DNA of 64,000 nucleotides from positions 25,874-89,873 of the IMG/VR virus record IMGVR_UViG_3300031730_000001. One strand, 5' to 3'. The position numbers and the translations under genes were made by a program. Shown here in pieces: positions 16,511 through 62,364 of the stretch. Each line of letters opens with the position of its first letter. The first letter of the stretch is position 1. The stretch is from a virus. A model generated the notes under the pieces. The model was not told where the DNA came from. It searched no databases and saw nothing but the letters and a program-made list of their open reading frames with translations.

Positions 16511-17551
16511 ATGAACACGCTTCCCGTCATCCGATCCACCGGGACCAGCCCCGACCGTCCAACCCAACGGGCCATCACGCTCCGCGGCAGGCCGCCCGCT
16601 TCGACCCCCGACGCACTGCTCGCGCTACTCGCTGAGGCCGGCGCCGGGCCCACCGTCCTGAAGGCCACCCGATCGTGGCTCGCCAAGCGCCCGAGTGGGC
16701 ACAGCAAGACCGCCTACGCCAAAGACGCCGCCTGGTGGCTCGCCTTCTGTGCCGCCAGTGACACCGACCCCACGCGCGCACGGGCCACCGACGCCGACGA
16801 CTACGAAACGGCGCTCCGCGAGACAGGCCTGGCCAAGTCAACTCGTGGGCGCCGCCTGGCTGCCGCGTCGAGCTGGTACACCTACCTGATCCGCGCGGAC
16901 GTCGCCGACCGGAACCCATTCGAGGGGATGGAGCGACCCTCAGTCTCCGCCGACGACTCACCCACCCGCGGACTCACCGCCGACCAGCTCGGCAGGCTGC
17001 TCAACCACGCCCGCGCTCGCGAGTCGACGCGCACCTATGCCCTGCTCGTCACGCTCGCCACCACCGCGGGTCGCATCGGCTCCGTCCTCGCTCTCACCGT
17101 AGGCAAGCTTGGCCACGACCAGGGTCACCGCGTCGCCGACCTGATCGTGAAGGGCGACAAGACCAAGCGCGTCGTCCTGGTCCCGCTCGCCGTCGAGGCC
17201 ATCGACCGCCACATGGACGGTCGACCCCTCCAGGACGACGACTATGTGTTCGCCACCAGTACCGGGCGGCCGATGGACGAACCGGCCGCCTTCCGTCTCG
17301 TTCGACGCGTAGCCGGGGCGGCAAGGCTTCCGCACGCCGACCAGTTGTCGCCCCACTCGCTGCGCCACTCCTACGCAACGGCGCTCCTGAGCAAGGGCGT
17401 CCCCCTCGCGGATGTGCAGGACGCCATGGGGCACGCAGACCCGCGCACCACTCGCCGCTACGACCGGGCCGCCGGGGCACTCGACCGCTCGCCGTCATAC
17501 AAGATGCAGGACGAGATCACGGCCGCGATGCGGGCTGCGGAGGGTGAGTAA
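16511..17551 (+). CDS. Tyrosine recombinase / integrase 1
   Basis: 346 residues. An N-terminal SAM-like DNA-binding domain (about 45-135) precedes the catalytic domain with Arg188 (TAGRIGSV), a Lys near 214-219 (KGDKTKR), His282 and Arg285 (HSLRHSYAT), His308 (GHADP) and Tyr317 (TTRRYDRA). The set is complete, so it should be active. The arrangement and the palindrome at its start recall XerC/D-like solitary recombinases. It is transcribed away from the phage late genes and is followed by a strong terminator, so it is a single-gene unit. Confidence 0.93.
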   Translation: MNTLPVIRSTGTSPDRPTQRAITLRGRPPASTPDALLALLAEAGAGPTVLKATRSWLAKRPSGHSKTAYAKDAAWWLAFCAASDTDPTRARATDADDYETALRETGLAKSTRGRRLAAASSWYTYLIRADVADRNPFEGMERPSVSADDSPTRGLTADQLGRLLNHARARESTRTYALLVTLATTAGRIGSVLALTVGKLGHDQGHRVADLIVKGDKTKRVVLVPLAVEAIDRHMDGRPLQDDDYVFATSTGRPMDEPAAFRLVRRVAGAARLPHADQLSPHSLRHSYATALLSKGVPLADVQDAMGHADPRTTRRYDRAAGALDRSPSYKMQDEITAAMRAAEGE

Positions 17552-22500: not shown

Positions 22501-22800
22501 TGGGAGTCTGGGAGACGGATTGGGAGACGATCACACTGGCGGAACCCAACGAAACACCCAACGAATCCGACGGTAGCCAGAGAGAAATGGGCTCTATGCT
22601 GGAGAGACGCCAGATCGTCGCAGGTAAGGAAGGCTCAACGAAGAGTCTGGGGCGACGCGGGGGATCGTCTCAGGCGGGCGGCGTGAGGGCCAGCGGACGG
22701 TCACGCGGCCCCACTTCCCGCCCAGCAGGACACGCGTAGAGGACTGATCCCGGAGTCGTCAGAGTGATCTTCATTCTTGGGCTTGGGAGATTTCTGGGAG
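22501..22800. other. Putative attachment region of integrase 2
   Basis: No gene is credible here. TGGGAG occurs at 22,501, 22,509, 22,521, 22,784 and 22,795, all in one direction and flanking a central segment, the arrangement of integrase arm sites. CCCAACGAA occurs at 22,545 and 22,557, with a related CAACGAA at 22,636. No tRNA was found, so the core cannot be named. The last TGGGAG copies lie within the 3' end of integrase 2. Confidence 0.4.
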
Positions 22801-24075
22801 ATCCACTTGCGGTCCGCGCTCCGACCGGCGCGGGCGGGGCTCCTCCCACTCCCGGTGGTGGTCCCTCACGCCCGCCGAGGCCTCCCACAGCTTCTGCAGA
22901 TCCGCCGCGATGTCCAGCTCCATCGGCAGCGTCGTGTGGCTGTAGGTCCCCTCAACTCCAGGGATAACGTGCCGCATCCGCTCCTCGACCGCAACCCGCG
23001 GGTGCTTCAGCTCATCGAGCCACACCTTCATGCTGTGGCGCAGCCCGTGCGGCACGATGTCCTCGATCCCCGCCACGGCCCTCATGTCCGGCAGTCGCGC
23101 AGGGCGGCCGAGCTTGTCCGGCGTCGCCGTGTGGCCGTCCACCCAGCGGCGCCAGATGTCCGTGTAGAAGTAGGCGCTCGTCGACATCTTCTTGCCGTTG
23201 GCCGAGGGGAACACCCAAGGCGACTTGTGCGAGGCCAGCACCTCTCCCAGTAGTTCGGCGAGGAACGGAGGGATGATCAGGCTTCCCGAGCTGCCGTACT
23301 TCGGATCCACCTGCGCCGGCTTGCCGCCCACGTACTGGTGCTGTTCCTCCACCAGCAGCCGGAAACCCTGCCCGTGGTCTTCGAGGATGAGGTGTTCGCG
23401 GCGCAGGCCGGCCGCCTCGGATATCCGGAGCCCGCAGTAGGCGATCGTGAGAACCAGGGCGTAGCCGACGATGCCGCGCATGGCGCGGGCGTTGCGGGCC
23501 AGCAGCAGGGCCTGGCGCGGGGTAGCAAGGACTGTGTCGTCCTTCTTCGGCTTGCCCTTGTACTTGCCGCGCCGACGGGCCTTCAGTGTGGGCACCGGGT
23601 TGTCGCCGATCACCTTCGAGGTGACGGCGTCGTCGAACATGACCCGCATCACCGACATGACGCTCTTTACGTACCGGGGCTTGTAGCGCTTGCGCAGCTG
23701 CTGCTCCCACGTCTTCACAGCGACCGTGGACACATCGGCCATGGCGGTCGGCTCCCACCTGGGGAGGATCACGGACCGGAGGCGTTGCCGGTACGTCTTG
23801 TCGCTGCGGTTGGCGAGCTCCACCGACTCGATCCACAGTTCGGACCAGTCGCCGACCGTGATGCGGCCGTCCTTCGGGTTGATGAACTTCTTGCGGCGCA
23901 CGTCGGTTTCGAGGCCGGCCGCATACTTCGTGGCGGCGTTGGCGCTGTAGAAGGGCTGCCCGAGATCGTCACGACTGACGGAGCCGTAGTTGATGCCGTC
24001 GGGCAGCAGGTAGCGCCCGCGGTATCGGTACTTGCGAGCCTTCTTGTCGTAGCCGCGCTTCTCTGGGTACGCCAT
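22771..24075 (-). CDS. int: Phage-type tyrosine integrase 2
   Basis: 434 residues. An arm-type N-terminus (RYRYRGRYLLPDG), SAM-like domain (about 70-170) and catalytic domain with Arg217 (CGLRISEAAGL), His343 and Arg346 (HGLRHSMKVW), His369 (MRHVIPG) and Tyr378 (EGTYSHTT). It integrates and, with a directionality factor, excises the element. The gene points toward the repeat region at 22.5-22.8 kb, which is the usual int-att layout in actinophages and AICEs. A likely excisionase is at 25,484. Confidence 0.93.
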   Translation of the reverse strand: MAYPEKRGYDKKARKYRYRGRYLLPDGINYGSVSRDDLGQPFYSANAATKYAAGLETDVRRKKFINPKDGRITVGDWSELWIESVELANRSDKTYRQRLRSVILPRWEPTAMADVSTVAVKTWEQQLRKRYKPRYVKSVMSVMRVMFDDAVTSKVIGDNPVPTLKARRRGKYKGKPKKDDTVLATPRQALLLARNARAMRGIVGYALVLTIAYCGLRISEAAGLRREHLILEDHGQGFRLLVEEQHQYVGGKPAQVDPKYGSSGSLIIPPFLAELLGEVLASHKSPWVFPSANGKKMSTSAYFYTDIWRRWVDGHTATPDKLGRPARLPDMRAVAGIEDIVPHGLRHSMKVWLDELKHPRVAVEERMRHVIPGVEGTYSHTTLPMELDIAADLQKLWEASAGVRDHHREWEEPRPRRSERGPQVDLPEISQAQE

Positions 24076-38379: not shown

Positions 38380-39486
38380 ATGGCTCGTGGCCACGGCCGG
38401 ATCCTCACCAGCATCTGGGAGGACGCCGACTTCCTCGCGCTCGAAGAGAGGGAGCAGCGCCTCTACCTGTTCCTCATCTCGCAGCCGAACCTGAACCACG
38501 CCGGCCTGCTCGACCTCACCCTGCGCCGCTGGTCCCGCAAGGCCCGCGGGCTCACCTCGGCCGAGCTGGAGAAGCTTCTCCAGTCACTGGAGGCCGCCCG
38601 GTTCATCGTCATGGATGACGACACCGAGGAACTGCTGATCCGGTCGTTCATCCGCAATGACGGCGTGTGGCGCATGCCGAAGGTGATGGGCGCGATGGTG
38701 TCCGGCGCACTGGAAATCTCGTCCAGGCGGCTTCAGTTGGCCCTGCTTGCCGAGGTCGACCGCATCCCCCTGGAGGAGTTGAGCGACGAACCGGCGAAGC
38801 TCCGCAACGGCGGCGAGGGCCCGTCGATCCGGCAGCAGGTTTCCGTCCATATCGACACCCTCCGCAAGGCGTTCGACAACCCGGAGCCGGACCCCACGGA
38901 AGGGGGTTCGGCAACCCCCTCTGAACCCCCTTCGGGAACCCCCTCCGATACCCAACCGGAACCCCCTGCCGAAGGGGGTCCGAAAGGCTCTACGCGCGGG
39001 CGCGCAGCCCTGCACGTGCACGCGGCCCCTGCCCCTGCCCCTGCCCCTGCCCCTGCCCCTGCCCCTGCCCCAACCACTCTTGTGGTTGGGGTGGGTAGTC
39101 AAGCCTCAGGTGGTAGCGCGCCGCGCACCTCGCCGCCTGACGGCGACGCCCCCATCGATCTCGATGGCGGATTCACCGTCAATGACGGCCTGCGTCGCTG
39201 GGCTCACCGCGACGGCTACGCCGACCGTGTCGACATCGACTACGAGACCGCCCAGTTCGTCAGCCACTTCCGCGGCAACTGCCAGCACCGCAGCAACTGG
39301 AACGAGGAGTGGCAGAAGTGGATCCGCCGCGCTCACAAGTGGGCGGTCGAGAACAAGCAGCGCCGCCCCTCCAACGTCATCGATCTTTCCTCCGGCCAGC
39401 CCCTTCCCGGCCCGGATACGAACCTCGCCGGCTGGGCCGCTGTCGCTGCTTCTTTCCCTTCCGAGACCTCTGAGGACTCCGCATGA
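38380..39486 (+). CDS. Replication initiator-like protein
   Basis: 368 residues. N-terminal domain (about 1-135) begins RILTSIWEDADFLALEEREQ, the pattern of actinophage DnaD/RepA-type replication proteins, with LLIRSFIRNDGVWRMPKVMG as the conserved part. A Pro/Gly-rich linker (about 165-250) contains an Ala-Pro repeat. The C-terminal domain has a second helix-rich region (DIDYETAQFVSHFRGNCQHR and NWNEEWQKWIRRAHKWA). The linker DNA holds iteron-like repeats, as in lambda O. The downstream coupled gene may be its partner. Confidence 0.72.
   Translation: MARGHGRILTSIWEDADFLALEEREQRLYLFLISQPNLNHAGLLDLTLRRWSRKARGLTSAELEKLLQSLEAARFIVMDDDTEELLIRSFIRNDGVWRMPKVMGAMVSGALEISSRRLQLALLAEVDRIPLEELSDEPAKLRNGGEGPSIRQQVSVHIDTLRKAFDNPEPDPTEGGSATPSEPPSGTPSDTQPEPPAEGGPKGSTRGRAALHVHAAPAPAPAPAPAPAPAPTTLVVGVGSQASGGSAPRTSPPDGDAPIDLDGGFTVNDGLRRWAHRDGYADRVDIDYETAQFVSHFRGNCQHRSNWNEEWQKWIRRAHKWAVENKQRRPSNVIDLSSGQPLPGPDTNLAGWAAVAASFPSETSEDSA
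38899..39091. repeat. Iteron-like repeats and hairpin (possible origin)
   Basis: AACCCCCT or its complement occurs five times between 38,901 and 38,967 and once with a mismatch (38,973). A (CCCTGC)n tract of about seven units follows (39,026-39,070), then a perfect 10-bp hairpin CCCCAACCAC / GTGGTTGGGG with loop TCTT at 39,068-39,091. All lie in the initiator gene. Confidence 0.5.
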
Positions 39487-42434: not shown

Positions 42435-42962
42435 ATGACCATCCGCCGTACCGCCGTTGCCGCAACAACCCTCGCCGCCTACATCGCCACGATCCCCGCC
42501 GCGAACATGGCGGTCGCCCATTTCGGCGCCGTCCCGGTCGGCTTCGGGCTACTGGCCCCGGCCGGCGTGTACGCGGTCGGCATCGCCCTGGTGCTGCGGG
42601 ATCTCGCCCGTGAAGTGGCGGGCCGCGCCGCGGTGGCGGCTGCCATCATCGCTGGTGCGGCCCTCTCCTTCCTGCTGGCCACCCCAGCCCTGGCGCTCGC
42701 GTCCACCGTGGCGTTCGCGGTGTCGGAGATCCTTGACTTCGCCGTGTACGAGCCTCTCCGAAAGCGCGGTCTGCTGGCTGCGATGACCGCCTCGAACGCG
42801 GCGGGTCTCGCCGCGGACAGCCTGCTCTTCCTGTGGCTCGCCTTCGGGTCCCTCACGTTTCTGCCGGGCCAGATCCTCGGCAAGGCATGGATGACCGTTG
42901 CCGCAGTCGCCGTCATCGCGGCGTTCCGTCGGCGGGTGCGTGGCGGGGCGGTGACGGCGTGA
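42435..42962 (+). CDS. VUT family (YhhQ-like) precursor transporter
   Basis: 175 residues, five or six hydrophobic helices. The signature region with VAHFGAVPVGFGLLAPAGVY, VLRDLAREVAGRAA, ALASTVAFAVSEILDFAVYE and GLAADSLLFLWLAFGSLTFLPG matches the VUT/YhhQ family, importers of preQ0 or preQ1 for queuosine-type bases. Coupled (GTGA) to the DpdA-like gene, so the imported 7-deazapurine probably feeds that enzyme. RBS is weak (AGGGGAA). Confidence 0.85.
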   Translation: MTIRRTAVAATTLAAYIATIPAANMAVAHFGAVPVGFGLLAPAGVYAVGIALVLRDLAREVAGRAAVAAAIIAGAALSFLLATPALALASTVAFAVSEILDFAVYEPLRKRGLLAAMTASNAAGLAADSLLFLWLAFGSLTFLPGQILGKAWMTVAAVAVIAAFRRRVRGGAVTA

Positions 42963-44005
42963 CCGCGGCCCCCGACCTCGACGCCGTCTGGACGCTGGAG
43001 GACTGCGACTGCGCCATGCGGTTCCTGTGCGGTCACTGCGTCCACGACCGGTGCGAGGACTGCGGGGGCTGCTCCGGCGGCGGCCCATGCGTCTGCCCGT
43101 GCGGGATTGCCGAACGCGGCGCGTGGACGGCGATGTGGGACAGCCTGGTCGCCGACCTGTACCTGGGCACGCACATGACGTCGTGGCTGTGGGACAAGAC
43201 GCTGGAGAAACAGTTCAAGGGCGTCACGTTCTTCATCTCCCGCGTCCGGCTCGCCCCGCGACGCAGCCCTTTCCCGCGCGCCCTGCACCGTTACTGCATC
43301 GACTCCGGCGGCTTCTCCGAACTGCAGAAGTTCGGGCGCTGGAGGATCACCGCCGCCGAATACGTCGCCGAGATCCGCCGCTTCCTTGCCGAACTCGGCT
43401 ACGAGCTGTGCGTGTGGGTTGCCCCGCAGGACCTGATGTGCGAGGAGATCGTCATCCGTGGCGGCGTCGGCGCCCGTGGCCAGGTCTTCCACGGCACCCG
43501 CGAGCTGCGTGGCCTGAAGCCGGGAGATCCGGAACAGGATCTGACGACCGCGGTACGGATCCATCAGCGGCTCACCGTCGAGAACCTGGTCGAGCTTCGG
43601 AGACTCGCCCCAGAGATCAAGTTCATACCGGTGCTGCAAGGCAACCGCTTCGAGGACTACGTGCACTGCGACCAGTTGTACGCAGCGGCGGGTATCGACC
43701 TTGCTGCAGAGCCCGTCGTCGGTCTCGGCTCCGTCTGCCGTCGCCAAGCCACCAGCGAAATCCGGGAGATCGTCGAGCACTTCGCCGCCAAGGGCTACCG
43801 CCTGCACGGCTTCGGCGTGAAAACCCTCGGCCTCGCCCAGTACGCCGACGGGCTCGTCTCCGCGGACTCGATGGCCTGGTCCGAAGACGCCCGCCGCTCC
43901 GGCCCCCTGCCCGGTCACGCGCACAAAAACTGCGCCAACTGTCCCGACTGGGCGCACCGCTGGCACCGGCGCATCGTCCAGACCCACCTCACCCCCGCCC
44001 CGTGA
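42959..44005 (+). CDS. dpdA: DpdA-family 7-deazaguanine DNA transglycosylase
   Basis: 348 residues. The tRNA-guanine transglycosylase fold is marked by Asp115 in DSGGFSELQKFG, FIPVLQGNR (224-230), GLGSVCRR (255-262), LHGFGVK (283-288) and SADSMAW with Asp303, the presumed nucleophile. A Cys pair CANC (325-328) with nearby His gives the zinc site. These fit the DpdA proteins that insert 7-deazaguanine bases into phage DNA better than a tRNA enzyme. The N-terminus (CDCAM to CVCPCG, residues 16-48) is an unusually Cys-rich extension. Overlaps the transporter gene by 4 bases. Confidence 0.88.
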   Translation: MTAAPDLDAVWTLEDCDCAMRFLCGHCVHDRCEDCGGCSGGGPCVCPCGIAERGAWTAMWDSLVADLYLGTHMTSWLWDKTLEKQFKGVTFFISRVRLAPRRSPFPRALHRYCIDSGGFSELQKFGRWRITAAEYVAEIRRFLAELGYELCVWVAPQDLMCEEIVIRGGVGARGQVFHGTRELRGLKPGDPEQDLTTAVRIHQRLTVENLVELRRLAPEIKFIPVLQGNRFEDYVHCDQLYAAAGIDLAAEPVVGLGSVCRRQATSEIREIVEHFAAKGYRLHGFGVKTLGLAQYADGLVSADSMAWSEDARRSGPLPGHAHKNCANCPDWAHRWHRRIVQTHLTPAP

Positions 44006-48587: not shown

Positions 48588-48847
48588 CCGACTGGACCCC
48601 GCCACCGCCCGGCGACCGGCGCGAGCAACTCCCGGCACATCTGCTCGCCCTCGTCAACATCCCGCCGTACACGTCGACCGCCTGCGAGATGGCGGGACTC
48701 CTCGACGCAGCCGCCGACGAGTACCAGGACCGGGCCGACGGGATCGCAGCCTGGATTGACCGGCTGCACTCCCGCTGCCGGCTCAACAACAAGTACACGG
48801 GCGCCAGTTGTGACTGCGCCTGCCACCGGGAAGGGCCCCGCCCGTGA
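48584..48847 (+). CDS. Small protein of unknown function
   Basis: 87 residues, GTG start. YTSTACEMAGLLDAAADEYQ and an end with CRLNNKYTGASCDCACHRE. Coupled to the Thg1-like gene. Unknown. Confidence 0.5.
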   Translation: MTDWTPPPPGDRREQLPAHLLALVNIPPYTSTACEMAGLLDAAADEYQDRADGIAAWIDRLHSRCRLNNKYTGASCDCACHREGPRP

Positions 48848-49668
48848 CCGACAAGACCGCGCTCGGCGACCGGATGAAGCGCTACGAGGCCGCCTATCGA
48901 TCCACTCTGCCGCGCCGCACGTACACGCTGCTCCGCGTCGACGGCCGGTCCTTCCACAGCTACCTGCGCGGCGCGGCCAAGCCGTTCGACGAGGCGTTCA
49001 TGGCCGACATGAACGCGGTCGCCGAAGCCCTCTGTGCGGAGATCACTGGCAGCGTGTTCGCCTACACGCAGTCCGACGAGATCAGCATCCTCGTCACCGA
49101 CTTCGCCAGCGAGCAGACCGAGCCGTGGTTCGGAGGGGTGGTTGCCAAGCAGCTCAGCATCTCCGCCGCACTCGCGACCGCCGTCCTCAACGAGCGGCGC
49201 CCGGGGGCGCGAGCTCTCTTCGACGCCCGCGTGTTCACCCTGTCCGACCCGGTGGAGGTGGCGAACTACTTCCTGTGGCGGCAACGCGACGCGGTCCGCA
49301 ACTCGATCTCGATGGCCGCCCAAGCCCGCTTCTCCCACAAGCGGCTGCACGGCGTGAGCAGCGGCGGCATGCAGGAACTGCTGTTCACCGAAGCCAGGAT
49401 CAACTGGAACGACTACCCCGGCGGCTGTAAACGCGGCCGGATCGCCGTCCGGCAGGTCGGGGAGCGGGCCGTCGAGTACGTCGACAAGCGCAGCAACGAG
49501 ACGGTGAACACCATCGCGGTCCGGTCGTGGTGGGAAACCAGCGCAGCCCCGCACTTCACCACCGAGCCGGGCTCGTGGCTGGCCCGCACAATCCCGGCGC
49601 TGCCGACTCTTCAGACGGCGCCCGCAGTCACCTGGACCTACACCAGCGACCCGCAGCCCGCGCGATGA
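48844..49668 (+). CDS. Thg1-like 3'-5' nucleotidyltransferase
   Basis: 274 residues. RVDGRSFHSY with Asp33, AYTQSDEISIL with Asp78 and Glu79 (metal-binding acids), KQLSISAALATA and ANYFLWRQRDAVRNSISMAA then FSHKRLHG are the Thg1/TLP signatures. Thg1 adds guanosine to tRNA-His; TLPs extend or repair tRNA 5' ends in reverse direction. In a phage it could mend tRNAs damaged by host defence nucleases or act in RNA repair. GTG start overlaps the previous stop; it is the last gene of the early operon. Confidence 0.92.
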   Translation: MTDKTALGDRMKRYEAAYRSTLPRRTYTLLRVDGRSFHSYLRGAAKPFDEAFMADMNAVAEALCAEITGSVFAYTQSDEISILVTDFASEQTEPWFGGVVAKQLSISAALATAVLNERRPGARALFDARVFTLSDPVEVANYFLWRQRDAVRNSISMAAQARFSHKRLHGVSSGGMQELLFTEARINWNDYPGGCKRGRIAVRQVGERAVEYVDKRSNETVNTIAVRSWWETSAAPHFTTEPGSWLARTIPALPTLQTAPAVTWTYTSDPQPAR

Positions 49669-57777: not shown

Positions 57778-58866
57778 GTGAGCAGCTGGTCCGAGGAGCG
57801 TCGCGCCGACAAGGCCGCCGACGCCGCCGAGCGCCGCCGCACCGACGAGCACCGGGCCCAGCTGCGTCGCGACGAGCGGCGCAAAGACCGCGACGAGGCC
57901 CGCGAGGTCAAGGCACAGGAGCGCCGCGACAAGACCGCCCGCCGGCAAGCCCGCGCAGCCCGACGGGAGAAGACCCTGACTGCGGCCAACGTGTACCGCA
58001 AGGGCACCCTCGCCTTGGTCGCAGCGTCCGCGCTCGCATCTCTGCCCGCGCAGGTCATGCACTTCGTGTCGATCAGCCTGATCCTGCTGCCGCTGCCGTT
58101 CGCGCTGGAGGGCGCGGCCTGGGTGATGGCTGCCGGCGTCGCCTACGCCGATGAGCGGAAGCTGCCCGCGTGGGTGCGCTGGCTGCTGCGGGCCCTGTCG
58201 ATGGGCGCGGCCGGCTATGCCGCCCACATCAACTACGAGTACGGCTCGCAGACCAACGCCTCGGTGGCGTGGGGTCTGGCCGGTGTCACGGTCATGGGCC
58301 CGGCGGTGTTCGAGATCCGGCAGTGGGTGCACACCCTGTCCGCTGCTGCGGTGGACCCGAAGAAGCGGGCCGAGGAGAAGGCCCGTGCCGCCCATGCCAG
58401 GAAGCGCAGCCGCCACCACGGCGACGTGGTGAAGCTGGCACGGAAGTTGGTCTCTGCCGCCCCCTTCGGTGTGCTGGCTTTCGAGGAGGCGTTCGTGTCT
58501 GCCTGGGAGATTCTGTACGGCACGCGCACCCCGGGCATGACCCCCTCCTTGCACGCTCAGGCGCACGCCTCGCGTAAGGCGCTGGCGGCTGCGTTCGACA
58601 CCGCCAACGGCTCGCCGGTGAGTAATCGCGCGCGCCTCCTGGAGCTGCTGCACCCGGCTCCGGTGAAGGTACTCGGAGTGCCCAAGAAGTCGCAGGTGGT
58701 TACCGATCTCCCCCCCTCCCCGGTGAAGCCCGGCAAGGCGGCCCGCAGGAAGCCCCCCGAGCACCGCCGCACCCCCGGCGACAGCGTGCCCTTCCACCCC
58801 CTCGCGAAGGTCGCCGCCGCAGACACCGCACACAAGCACATGGCCGTCAACGGCCACCACAACTGA
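57778..58866 (+). CDS. DUF2637/Spd-like membrane protein
   Basis: 362 residues. A highly charged coiled-coil N-terminus (about 1-60) precedes four to five hydrophobic helices (about 68-185), then a basic C-terminal region. This is the DUF2637 architecture of Streptomyces spread (Spd) proteins, which help plasmid DNA cross septa after conjugal transfer. GAAAGGA precedes the GTG. Upstream of the translocase gene, as in AICEs. Confidence 0.82.
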   Translation: MSSWSEERRADKAADAAERRRTDEHRAQLRRDERRKDRDEAREVKAQERRDKTARRQARAARREKTLTAANVYRKGTLALVAASALASLPAQVMHFVSISLILLPLPFALEGAAWVMAAGVAYADERKLPAWVRWLLRALSMGAAGYAAHINYEYGSQTNASVAWGLAGVTVMGPAVFEIRQWVHTLSAAAVDPKKRAEEKARAAHARKRSRHHGDVVKLARKLVSAAPFGVLAFEEAFVSAWEILYGTRTPGMTPSLHAQAHASRKALAAAFDTANGSPVSNRARLLELLHPAPVKVLGVPKKSQVVTDLPPSPVKPGKAARRKPPEHRRTPGDSVPFHPLAKVAAADTAHKHMAVNGHHN

Positions 58867-58908: not shown

Positions 58909-59487
58909 ATGAACCCCACCATCCGCCAGTTCGCCGTCTCGGGCAGTGCGGCCGTAGCCCTCCTCGGAGGCGCCGCAGCCATCACTACCGTGGCCGCGCC
59001 GTCCGCGTCCGCCGCCGAGCAGGCCACCGTCACTCGCGCCGCCACCGCACCCGTGCAGATGCCCGACGGCCGTACCGTCCGGATCACCGGCATGGGCGGC
59101 TACGGCCACCAGGCCACCGGCGCGCACATCGCCACCGTCGCCGCGTTCGAGACCGACACCAGCCCCGGTGTCGGCTCAGGCCTCACCCCCGACGGCGGCG
59201 CAGGCGCAGCCATCGGCAACCCGGTCACCGGCACCCAGACCGGCTACAACCAGCAGGTCACCACCCAGGCCACCGGTGCCGGCGTCGCGACCGGTGTCGT
59301 CGCGATCCTCGTCCTCGGCATCATCGTCTTCTTCAAGGTCAAGCACGGCCACGTCAAGGCCATGGACGCCGTCGTCGTCGCCCTGTTCGGGATCGCCATC
59401 TCCGGCACGGTCATCGGCGGCATGGGCGGCTCGCTCACCAACTCCCTCGTCGGCTCGATGGGCTCCATGCTCAGCGGCCTCGGCTAG
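58909..59487 (+). CDS. Exported membrane protein of tra module
   Basis: 192 residues. A signal peptide (AVSGSAAVALLGGAAAITTV, cleavage near ASA-AEQ), a Gly/Thr-rich extracellular stretch, and two C-terminal hydrophobic helices (about 126-145 and 152-180). This is a VirB2/SpdB-like plan typical of AICE transfer regions. AGGAGAG before the ATG. Confidence 0.65.
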   Translation: MNPTIRQFAVSGSAAVALLGGAAAITTVAAPSASAAEQATVTRAATAPVQMPDGRTVRITGMGGYGHQATGAHIATVAAFETDTSPGVGSGLTPDGGAGAAIGNPVTGTQTGYNQQVTTQATGAGVATGVVAILVLGIIVFFKVKHGHVKAMDAVVVALFGIAISGTVIGGMGGSLTNSLVGSMGSMLSGLG

Positions 59488-59548: not shown

Positions 59549-61729
59549 GTGGCCACCGAAGCCCAGCCCGACATGGAGAAGCAGCCGACCGAGGCGGCCA
59601 CCGAGCCCACTCGCGGCGACCGCATCAAGGCCGCGTTCGCCGTGCAGCGTGGCCACGTCAGCGCCCGCACCAAGGACTGGCTCGCCACCGGCGACCTCGA
59701 CGAACTCGACATCCTGCAGCTCGCCGCCGAACGCAAGCAACGCAAGCACAACGAGAAGATCGTCCACCAGAACCGGATCGTCGCCGAAGCGCACGGAAAC
59801 CTCTACAACGCCAAGCTGCAGGCCGAGAACGGCGACGGCGGCAACGGTGCCGTGTCGCGTCTGGGAGGTCGCGTGGCTGCGGAAGAGGCCAAGCTCGCCG
59901 CACTCCAGAACACAATCGTGATGCCTCCGACCGACCGTGAGATCAACATGGTCCGCCACACCAAGAAGGCGACCCGGGGCGCCATCCTCGCTGGCGGCGG
60001 CCTCGCATCGCTGCCCATGCTGGGCACTGCGATCGAGATGACCGCCAACGGTCAGCCGCTCATCCTCGCCGCCCTCGGCACGGCCGCCGGCTACGGCTGG
60101 TACCTGGTCTCGCGCCCTTTCGTCGACGGCCAGCCTGCACCTGCCCCGAGCATGGAGACGCAGCTGGCCGCCCCGGTCGACATGGTGAAGACCGAGCAGC
60201 CGGGGATGCGGGAGTTCAACGCCCCGCCGCCGCCCGCGTGCACCGTGCCGCAGCTTGAGGAAGCCCTCCGCAAGATCGGCATGGTGAAAGGTGACGAGCA
60301 GCTCGCGATTCTCGCCGTGCCGCAGCGGGAGAAGGACGGCAACACCACCGTCGTCTTCGACCTGCCCGCAGGCCAGACTGTCGCCAAACTCCAAGACAAG
60401 ATCGAGGTGTTCGCCGGCGCGATCGGCCGCGACTCCGCCATGGTCGACATCGAGAAGAAGGGCAGCGCAGTCCGCACCAGCCTGTGGATCGCCGACCAGG
60501 ACCCGTTCGAAGATGTCCGGCCTTCACCGCTCCTGAAGAAGCCCACCCAGTTGGACGCCTTCAAGGACGGCGTGCCGGTCGGCTGGGGCAAGCGGGGCAA
60601 CACCATCCTGCTGCCCATCAGCACCTCCAACACGGTGATCGGCGGCACGACCCGCTCCGGCAAGGGCGTCGGCGCATCCAACCTGGTCGTCGGCGCCGCC
60701 TTCGACCCGCGCATCAACCTGCGGATCATCGCAGGTAAGCAGAACGGTGAATGGGACGCCTACGCCAAGGCCGGAGTCGCATCCACCTACTTCAAGCCCG
60801 ACCCGGACAGGCTCGTCGCCCTCCTGGAAGCCGAGATCGCCGACAAGAACAGGCGCGAAGTCGAACTCGGTCGCCTCGGCAAGAGCAAGCTCGTTGCGCC
60901 CGCCATTGAGCAGATCGGCGGCATTGAGCTGATCGTGATCGACGAAGGGGCGACATACACCAGGTCGAAGAAGCATCGCCGTGACGAGATCATGGAGAGG
61001 CTGGTCCTGCTCGCGTCGGTTGCCGCTGGTGCAGGCATCCTCATCGTCTTCATCACGCAGTACCCGAACGCCGACGTCTTCCCGAGCGAACTCGCCGTCA
61101 ACTTCACGACCAGCTGGGCGATGCGCGTCGACAATGCGGAGCAGTCGAACGCCATCCTCGGCAAGGGCCAGTCGGGCATGGGGCGTGACGCCTCCAAGTT
61201 CGATCCGCCGCGGCCCGGCCTCGGCTGGCTGGTCAATCCGTTCGCGGGGATCACCGACAAGGCCCGCAGCTTTGACATCGACGAGGACGACCGCAGCGAG
61301 ATCACGATGCTGCTAGAGAAGGCGGCGAAGATCCGCGAGAAGGCGGGCCGGCTGGCCGGGCAGTGGGACGACCCGATCGAGCAGCACCTCCTCAACGCCA
61401 CCGGCCTGTCGTCGGCAGCCGGCGGCCCGAAGCGGGACGGCATCCCGGGCCGGAACGTCCTCAACCACACGCCGGAGCAGCGCATGCAGATGGACGCGCT
61501 GCGCGGCTGCCTCGTCGCGATGAACGACCTCGGCCGGGATGTGGCGCAGCTCGACGAGATGGCCCAGGTCATCGGCGGCGGCATGGCGGAGGAGCGTCTC
61601 GGCGAGTTGCTTCGAGCGGCCGGGGCCGGCGGAACGGTCAAGGTCACGATTCCGGGGTTGCGGAACCGCGTGAACGGCTACAAGCGGGCGGACATCGCCG
61701 ACGCGCTCGAACTCCTCGAAGGCAACTAG
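59549..61729 (+). CDS. FtsK/SpoIIIE-family conjugative translocase (TraB-type)
   Basis: 726 residues. N-terminal cytoplasmic coil, two membrane helices (about 145-185), then the motor: Walker A GGTTRSGKGV (about 365-374), Walker B IELIVIDEGA (about 459-468), arginine-rich segment and a C-terminal winged helix (AGGTVKVTIPGLRNRVNGYK). It pumps double-stranded DNA into the recipient, the hallmark of Streptomyces conjugation. AGGAAGGA precedes the GTG; the frame extends upstream but is a shadow of the previous gene. Candidate recognition repeats lie just downstream. Confidence 0.9.
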   Translation: MATEAQPDMEKQPTEAATEPTRGDRIKAAFAVQRGHVSARTKDWLATGDLDELDILQLAAERKQRKHNEKIVHQNRIVAEAHGNLYNAKLQAENGDGGNGAVSRLGGRVAAEEAKLAALQNTIVMPPTDREINMVRHTKKATRGAILAGGGLASLPMLGTAIEMTANGQPLILAALGTAAGYGWYLVSRPFVDGQPAPAPSMETQLAAPVDMVKTEQPGMREFNAPPPPACTVPQLEEALRKIGMVKGDEQLAILAVPQREKDGNTTVVFDLPAGQTVAKLQDKIEVFAGAIGRDSAMVDIEKKGSAVRTSLWIADQDPFEDVRPSPLLKKPTQLDAFKDGVPVGWGKRGNTILLPISTSNTVIGGTTRSGKGVGASNLVVGAAFDPRINLRIIAGKQNGEWDAYAKAGVASTYFKPDPDRLVALLEAEIADKNRREVELGRLGKSKLVAPAIEQIGGIELIVIDEGATYTRSKKHRRDEIMERLVLLASVAAGAGILIVFITQYPNADVFPSELAVNFTTSWAMRVDNAEQSNAILGKGQSGMGRDASKFDPPRPGLGWLVNPFAGITDKARSFDIDEDDRSEITMLLEKAAKIREKAGRLAGQWDDPIEQHLLNATGLSSAAGGPKRDGIPGRNVLNHTPEQRMQMDALRGCLVAMNDLGRDVAQLDEMAQVIGGGMAEERLGELLRAAGAGGTVKVTIPGLRNRVNGYKRADIADALELLEGN

Positions 61730-61753
61730 GCGAAGCGGTATGCACCGCTTTGC

Positions 61754-61868
61754 CCCGGACAGTCCAGGGTGAAATGTGACATTCACCCGGACTGTACCCC
61801 GGACGCTCGCCCCGTCGCCCCGGACAGCACCCGGACGCGACCCGGGTCACGACCACCCGCCGTCCGGG
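61754..61868. repeat. CCCGGAC repeats, putative clt/TRS
   Basis: CCCGGAC occurs at 61,754, 61,786, 61,798, 61,819 and 61,830, and inverted at 61,862. Start spacings are 32, 12, 21 and 11, near whole helical turns. ACAGTCCAGGGTGAA and TTCACCCGGACTGT (61,759-61,796) form a large imperfect hairpin around ATGTGACA. As recalled, pSVH1 TraB binds GACCCGGA repeats; ACCCGGA occurs twice here and GACCCGG once (61,839). Confidence 0.65.
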
Positions 61869-61938
61869 GGTGCGACTGGGTGCAAATTATCGCAAGTCCA
61901 CCCGACAAAGCTACGTAAAAACGACAGGAGATCCACTC

Positions 61939-62364
61939 ATGCCCAAGACCTGGCAGCCCGGACGCAGGGGCGTCCGTGAGCTCACCCGCTTCATCTCGGA
62001 GAACGGCAAGGGCGTCACCGTCTACACCGTCTCCCAGCAGGCCCTCAACGCGGCGCCGTGGGAGGACGCCAAAATGTGGGTCGCCCGCACCTTCGACTGG
62101 CGCTCCCCGATCACCGGCCACTGGATGACCGGGCACCTCTCCGTCGAAGGACTCTTTGCGCAAGAGGGCACCGTCTACGAGCAGCCGCCCCGCGGCATGC
62201 GCGAACTCGGCAGCCCCGGACGTCAGGTCGCCGGCCCCGTCGGCCACGGCGACTACAGCGCCTATCTCGACGACTCGGAGATCCGCGGACTGCAGAAGCG
62301 GGTCCAGAACGGAAGCGACCCCGCGACCCGCCCCAGCCGCGGCGAACGCGGACGGCGTCGCTGA
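61939..62364 (+). CDS. Small protein of tra module
   Basis: 141 residues. KTWQPGRRGVRELTRFISEN, WVARTFDWRSPITGHWMTG and a basic end. ACAGGAG before the ATG. No family recognised; follows the translocase and the repeats. Confidence 0.58.
   Translation: MPKTWQPGRRGVRELTRFISENGKGVTVYTVSQQALNAAPWEDAKMWVARTFDWRSPITGHWMTGHLSVEGLFAQEGTVYEQPPRGMRELGSPGRQVAGPVGHGDYSAYLDDSEIRGLQKRVQNGSDPATRPSRGERGRRR

What the first reader, a model, noticed from the sequence alone, without database searches (positions are those of the whole stretch)
61754..61868. Helically phased CCCGGAC repeats next to the TraB-type gene
Five same-strand heptamers at near-whole-turn spacings (32, 12, 21, 11) plus an inverted copy lie just after the translocase stop. 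They resemble the TraB recognition octamer GACCCGGA described for pSVH1, and the big hairpin at 61,759-61,796 overlaps. This is a strong candidate clt locus with its own sequence specificity.
Basis: partly seen in the sequence, partly recalled or inferred. Interest (0 to 1): 0.7.

Follow-up and report, generated by a model that had tools for sequence, protein, structure and literature searches.

The report
Phage-borne docking array for TraB
A Streptomyces-type phage genome carries, just after a plasmid-style DNA-pump gene, a short non-coding array of repeats that most likely serves as the pump's landing pad for moving double-stranded DNA between cells; in related elements the pad's sequence changes together with the pump's last domain.

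Summary
Five forward CCCGGAC heptamers and one inverted copy lie in the 210-bp non-coding gap after a TraB-like FtsK translocase; the largest heptamer count in 2000 shuffles was 4. The phasing is weak in the window alone (P about 0.015) but strong across the family. The clt reading is well supported by comparison. About 60 related tra genes, mostly in phage contigs, nearly all have a repeat array at the same place. Its heptamer differs between lineages (at least 15 sequences). Copies run forward, then reverse, in 42 of 45 loci. Same-strand spacings are multiples of about 10.85 bp. Motif identity follows the TraB C-terminal domain, not the motor. In one natural swap the motors are 98% identical, the C-termini 20%, the motifs ACCCTGC and CCCGTGAT, and homology resumes on both sides. 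pSVH1 shows the same placement with GACCCGGA; that exact octamer is absent here, so specificity is related but probably distinct. The hairpin is missing from 8 of 9 close relatives, so it is not core. The record is a closed phage genome of about 89.6 kb. Most likely it is a TraB-type conjugation or spreading module carried by a temperate phage.

The parts
57778..58866 (+). SpdB2-like spread protein gene
   Evidence: 27% identity over about 320 aa to pSVH1 SpdB2, E = 4e-18 for the pair
58909..59487 (+). small putative membrane protein between spdB2 and traB (spd-like by position)
   Evidence: position in the operon; no confident family hit
59549..61729 (+). TraB-like FtsK/SpoIIIE dsDNA translocase gene (726 aa, GTG start)
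   Evidence: 29% identity to pSVH1 TraB, E = 6e-36; phrog_1358 FtsK/SpoIIIE-like, E = 2.5e-31; solved FtsK motor structures by phmmer, E = 9e-6; Pfam PF01580 only 16.7 bits, below its cut-off of 24
61427..61726 (+). codons of the TraB C-terminal domain, proposed repeat-reading domain
   Evidence: motif identity tracks this domain with the motor controlled for; swapped as a block with the array in L084/L086
61583..61627 (+). candidate recognition helix MAEERLGELLRAAGA (fold inferred from the alignment pattern)
   Evidence: alignment; structure not predicted
61730..61939 (.). non-coding clt candidate region
   Evidence: gap between the tra stop and the next ATG; array present at the same place in relatives
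61749..61756 (+). left outer element TTTGCCCC
   Evidence: conserved with an inverted partner on the right in the close clade
61754..61760 (+). repeat 1 CCCGGAC
61762..61768 (-). degenerate inverted repeat (GTCCAGG), left arm of the hairpin
   Evidence: one mismatch to the reverse complement
61755..61802 (+). hairpin, specific to this lineage
   Evidence: z = -4.6; not conserved in 8 of 9 relatives
61786..61792 (+). repeat 2 CCCGGAC
61798..61804 (+). repeat 3 CCCGGAC
61819..61825 (+). repeat 4 CCCGGAC
61830..61836 (+). repeat 5 CCCGGAC
61862..61868 (-). inverted repeat copy (GTCCGGG on +)
   Evidence: relatives also have inverted copies at the right end
61878..61886 (-). right outer element GGGTGCAAA, inverted relative of the left one
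   Evidence: CAAA invariant in 10 aligned relatives

Best explanation
The segment is a cis-acting transfer locus (clt): a helically phased array of 7-8-bp recognition sites for the TraB-like FtsK translocase encoded next to it. Inferred steps: the TraB C-terminal domain reads CCCGGAC on one face of the DNA; several copies about 11 bp apart nucleate a hexamer; the motor then pumps the phage's double-stranded circular genome across a septum or hyphal contact with SpdB2-like help. The sequence specificity is set by the C-terminal domain, which evolves and recombines together with the adjacent array. Shown by sequence: the array, its placement, conservation, phasing, polarity and co-variation with the C-terminal domain. 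Inferred: binding, hexamer loading and transfer.
For: Repeats confirmed and far above shuffles. Same placement in pSVH1, whose TraB is described in papers as binding 8-bp repeats in clt (PMC12857230, PMC4170104); in pWTY27 clt lies at the tra 3' end and is footprinted by TraA (PMC3583192). Array kept in the 65-75% identical relatives. In 47 non-redundant loci with at least 4 copies, 42 of the 45 that have both orientations split perfectly into forward then reverse (12.1 expected), and 159 same-strand spacings fit a period of about 10.85 bp with R = 0.84. A later set, mostly plasmids, not used to set up the test, gives R = 0.57, n = 29, P about 1e-4. Partial Mantel: motif with C-terminus given motor r = 0.36, P = 0.0005; motif with motor given C-terminus r = -0.003, P = 0.52. 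Natural 2x2 swap, with L084/L086 homology lost only from -289 to about +200 around the tra stop. SpdB2 homologue upstream. Negative controls: distant Micromonospora FtsK genes without this C-terminus (L026, L028, L029, L031, L038) have no array.
Against: No binding or transfer data. C-terminus and array are adjacent, so linkage alone could move them together, although linkage does not explain why the repeats stay constant while the spacers diverge. L016/L050 and L047 keep a nearly identical candidate helix but lack clean repeats. The winged-helix fold is unconfirmed. Loci are related, so P-values overstate independence, and the heptamer was chosen per locus by count.
Confidence: 0.85

Rival explanations
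1. An iteron-type replication origin: the repeats bind a replication initiator.
For: Streptomyces theta plasmids can have short direct and inverted repeats in non-coding DNA, as in pWTY27, whose RepA binds a 105-bp inverted repeat.
Against: The array is always tied to tra. The motif changes with the TraB C-terminal domain. No ParA-type partition gene was found in this record, and the phage has tyrosine integrases.
Confidence: 0.05
2. An operator array for a transcription regulator of the tra operon or of the downstream gene.
For: The region lies upstream of the next gene and could hold its promoter; related plasmid tra clusters carry GntR regulators.
Against: No sigma-70-like promoter or terminator was found. 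The motif follows the translocase C-terminus. Up to 8 phased copies in two opposed sets is unlike a simple operator.
Confidence: 0.06
3. A packaging (pac) or injection site read by the phage terminase.
For: The genome is a phage with a terminase large subunit.
Against: The terminase gene is about 17 kb away on the circular map. Similar arrays follow tra in plasmids such as pSVH1.
Confidence: 0.02
4. The TraB/clt module moves phage DNA within the mycelium across septa, rather than between mating colonies (a different use of the same docking array).
For: Spd proteins serve intramycelial spreading in plasmids (PMC12857230), and an SpdB2 homologue sits in the operon.
Against: In plasmids TraB and clt are needed for intercellular transfer; nothing here separates the two uses.
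Confidence: 0.3

Closest known systems
pSVH1 traB-clt (Streptomyces venezuelae plasmid, NC_007431)
   Same: FtsK-type TraB with SpdB2 upstream; short repeats in the gap right after traB, mainly forward with one inverted copy; shared CCCGGA core
   Different: Octamer GACCCGGA there, none here; TraB 29% identical with a different C-terminus; a 12.7-kb plasmid rather than an 89.6-kb phage
pWTY27 traA-clt
   Same: clt at the tra 3' end (16 bp inside traA plus 159 bp downstream) with 7-bp direct repeats and inverted repeats, footprinted by TraA (PMC3583192)
   Different: Repeats TGACACC and CCCGCCC; theta plasmid; phased bipolar geometry not described there
pZL12 / phage ZL12, Streptomyces plasmid-phage (NC_013420)
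   Same: About 90-kb phage genome with an FtsK-like gene and a plasmid life stage (cited in PMC4487206)
   Different: P0001 has no tblastn match in the phage collection that holds it; no repeat array after its FtsK-like gene; has ParAB, while no ParA was found here
FtsK/KOPS loading on chromosomes
   Same: FtsK-family motor with a separate C-terminal DNA-reading domain and short oriented sites (general knowledge)
   Different: Clustered array instead of genome-wide polar sites; sequence differs by lineage; C-terminus has no detectable sequence match to the FtsK gamma domain

Membership tests
TraB-type clt locus | non-coding cis region adjacent to the tra gene | tested here: met
   61730-61939, directly after the tra stop
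TraB-type clt locus | several copies of a 7-9-bp direct repeat, more than chance | tested here: met
   6 copies; maximum in 2000 shuffles 4
TraB-type clt locus | repeat sequence linked to the DNA-reading domain of the cognate TraB | tested here: met
   partial Mantel and natural swaps across relatives
TraB-type clt locus | specific binding by the cognate TraB | not testable with these tools
   needs gel shift or footprint
TraB-type clt locus | required in cis for transfer | not testable with these tools
   needs a transfer assay
pSVH1 recognition-sequence class | octamer GACCCGGA | tested here: not met
   zero copies in 61700-61960; only the CCCGGA core is shared
TraB translocase | FtsK/SpoIIIE motor homologous to known TraB | tested here: met
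   29% identity to pSVH1 TraB, E = 6e-36; FtsK structures by phmmer; PF01580 below cut-off
TraB translocase | C-terminal winged-helix DNA-binding domain | tested here: inconclusive
tailed phage genome | terminase, portal, head protease, tape measure, integrase | tested here: met
   ends of the record overlap by 243 bp at 242/243 identity

The most novel reading that the evidence does not exclude
Temperate Streptomyces phages carry a complete plasmid-type dsDNA conjugation module whose loading site is a bipolar, helically phased array. The two opposed site sets would load two TraB motors facing each other, so that both arms of the circular phage genome are pumped at once, as SpoIIIE does with a chromosome. 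The phage would then spread through mycelium or to neighbours without making virions. Specificity is exchanged as one cassette of C-terminal domain plus array, giving mutually exclusive transfer types.
Probability: 0.3. Interest if true: 0.82.

Novelty: new variant of a known kind. Interest (0 to 1): 0.62.

Why it matters
How TraB recognises DNA and how an unprocessed circular duplex is fed through the pump are open questions. The family shown here gives at least 15 natural protein-repeat pairs, including near-perfect domain swaps and a one-base change (CCCGGAC to CCCGGAA in L055/L056), so a recognition code can be tested directly. It also gives a geometry (forward set, reverse set, 10.85-bp steps) that predicts how many motors load and which way they face. 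It extends TraB-type transfer to many phage contigs, a possible second route of spread besides virions.

Tried and rejected
Pfam and PDB profile searches with the C-terminus gave nothing meaningful; calmodulin and similar hits have E above 0.03. Exact mirror symmetry of the arrays was tested and is only modestly above a spacing-shuffled null (98 against 86.5 pairs), so I claim polarity and phasing, not universal perfect dyads. The hairpin as core element is rejected. Terminator or sigma-70 promoter: none found. Genome-wide KOPS-like polarity: CCCGGAC outside the array is 34 forward to 10 reverse, expected 18-24 and 10-14 by Markov models; a weak forward excess confounded by gene orientation. 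pZL12 as homologue: not similar. The DUF2637 search rang in no control genome and is uninformative. The phrog_12 search is not used because its label was not checked. Vogelmann 2011 is not held in the library, so the octamer being the pSVH1 recognition site rests on memory; its presence in the pSVH1 sequence was checked here.

Full report
What was claimed.

Observation. All six copies are where stated. They lie in the 210-bp non-coding gap between the translocase stop (61729) and the next gene's ATG (61940). In 2000 dinucleotide shuffles of the gap no heptamer exceeded 4 copies, against 6 observed. Across the window the heptamer is at its chance frequency (31 against 30.3), so the clustering is the signal. 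Phasing from four spacings alone is only suggestive (P = 0.0147). The hairpin is real as a fold (z = -4.6) but sits in a lineage-specific stretch: in an alignment of ten close relatives only L044 has a comparable stem, with other arms, and most others carry a forward repeat there instead. Its left arm is largely a degenerate inverted repeat copy facing repeat 2.

What the genome is. The window is the last 64 kb of an 89,873-bp IMG/VR record whose ends overlap by 243 bp at 242/243 identity, so it closes to about 89.6 kb. It encodes terminase, portal and head protease, tape measure, tail, endolysin and two tyrosine integrases, RecT and an antirepressor. It looks like a temperate tailed phage. 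No ParA-type gene was found. The tra operon has an SpdB2-like gene (27% to pSVH1 SpdB2, E = 4e-18), a small gene, then the TraB-like translocase (29% to pSVH1 TraB).

Relatives. Searches of viral contigs and of genome contigs gave about 60 related tra loci, mostly in IMG/VR contigs, some in chromosomal contigs and one 92.6-kb circular plasmid. Of 46 viral records tested, 29 match terminase profile phrog_9; a tape-measure domain adds three more, giving 32 with at least one of the two. No match to this translocase exists in 50,697 GenBank phage records.

The array is a family trait. The 200 bp after the tra stop contains a repeated heptamer well above shuffles in most loci. The sequence differs by lineage: CCCGGAC, CCCGGAA, CTGCTCG, CCGTGAT, ACCCTGC, AGGTCTG, GGTCGGA, CCTGGGA, TGCGACG, GAGGTTC, GGTGTCC, GCCTGAC, CCCTGAC, CCGGGAC, GGGTGGA and others. 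pSVH1 shows GACCCGGA four times forward and once inverted within 115 bp after traB. Ten further plasmids give similar arrays in most cases, for example pSG5 CCCGGAC and pFP11 CCTGGAC.

Geometry. In 47 non-redundant loci with at least four copies, 45 have both orientations and 42 of these split perfectly into a forward set followed by a reverse set; 12.1 are expected if orientations are shuffled. The 159 same-strand spacings cluster on multiples of about 10.85 bp (R = 0.84). The cleanest case is L082: 1+, 12+, 45+, 56+, then 101-, 112-, 145-, 156-. In the later set, mostly plasmids, R = 0.57 with n = 29. Exact mirror symmetry is clear in some subfamilies only. The window array has five forward copies and one reverse. 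The loci are related by descent, so the nominal P-values are too small; the effect sizes are the point.

Who reads the repeats. Motif similarity between loci correlates with C-terminal identity after controlling for motor identity (r = 0.36, permutation P = 0.0005) and not with motor identity after controlling for the C-terminus (r = -0.003, P = 0.52). Nature has made a two-by-two design. L084 and L086 have motors 98% identical, C-termini 20% identical, motifs ACCCTGC and CCCGTGAT. L074-L076, with a motor only about half identical to L084, share its ACCCTGC and about 60% of its C-terminus. L073 and L079 share the CCGTGAT-type motif and 56-60% of the C-terminus of L086/L088. Between L084 and L086 the DNA is homologous up to 289 bp before the stop and again from 211 (169) bp after it, so the exchanged block is C-terminal codons plus array. 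Linkage alone could co-transfer the two, but the repeats stay constant inside a class while the spacers diverge, which points to selection on the pairing. Exceptions: L016/L050 and L047 keep the candidate helix but have no clean repeats. Distant Micromonospora FtsK genes without this C-terminus have no array.

Mechanism. Best reading: TraB docks by its C-terminal domain on phased repeats and pumps the double-stranded phage genome to another compartment or cell, as described for plasmids (PMC12857230, PMC4170104; clt footprint in pWTY27, PMC3583192). Recognition of this segment, loading and transfer are inferred. The forward-then-reverse layout suggests, but does not show, loading of two opposed motors. 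The TraB/clt pair is a new variant of a known kind: same principle as pSVH1, different recognition sequence, phage carrier, and a geometry I did not find described in the papers held here.

Limits. Vogelmann 2011 is not in the library. All evidence is comparative; no binding or transfer was measured.

Noticed in passing
L009, L010, L012, L022, L061, L073-L079, L120-L129 and others, about +37 and +134 after the tra stop: A second element, GCAGGTCAG then its inverse CTGACCTGC, flanks or sits inside the array and stays constant across different repeat classes (CGCAGGTC in 37 of 70 loci; shuffle maximum 14). The window clade lacks it. It may bind a shared factor.
   Followed up: partly
window 38868-39150: The only other heptamer cluster of similar density in the record: ACCCCCT x6 in 120 bp, then CCCCTGC/CAGGGGC.
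   Followed up: no
window 42833-44005: DpdA-like protein (PF23859, E = 3e-70), suggesting 7-deazaguanine-type DNA modification in this phage.
   Followed up: no
window 48844-49668: tRNA-His guanylyltransferase (Thg1) homologue in a phage.
   Followed up: no
window 16511-17551 (+) and 22771-24075 (-): Two tyrosine integrases in one phage.
   Followed up: no
L055 and L056, after the tra stop: Array with a single-base change, CCCGGAA instead of CCCGGAC, together with class-specific residues in the C-terminus (DKVKI..W instead of VKV); a candidate for recognition residues.
   Followed up: partly
whole record, outside the array: CCCGGAC is 34 forward to 10 reverse, a weak forward excess over Markov expectation, possibly from gene orientation.
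   Followed up: partly
L094 14463-16836 (phage ZL12 gp071): The FtsK-like gene of pZL12 has no repeat array behind it and no detectable similarity to this translocase.
   Followed up: partly
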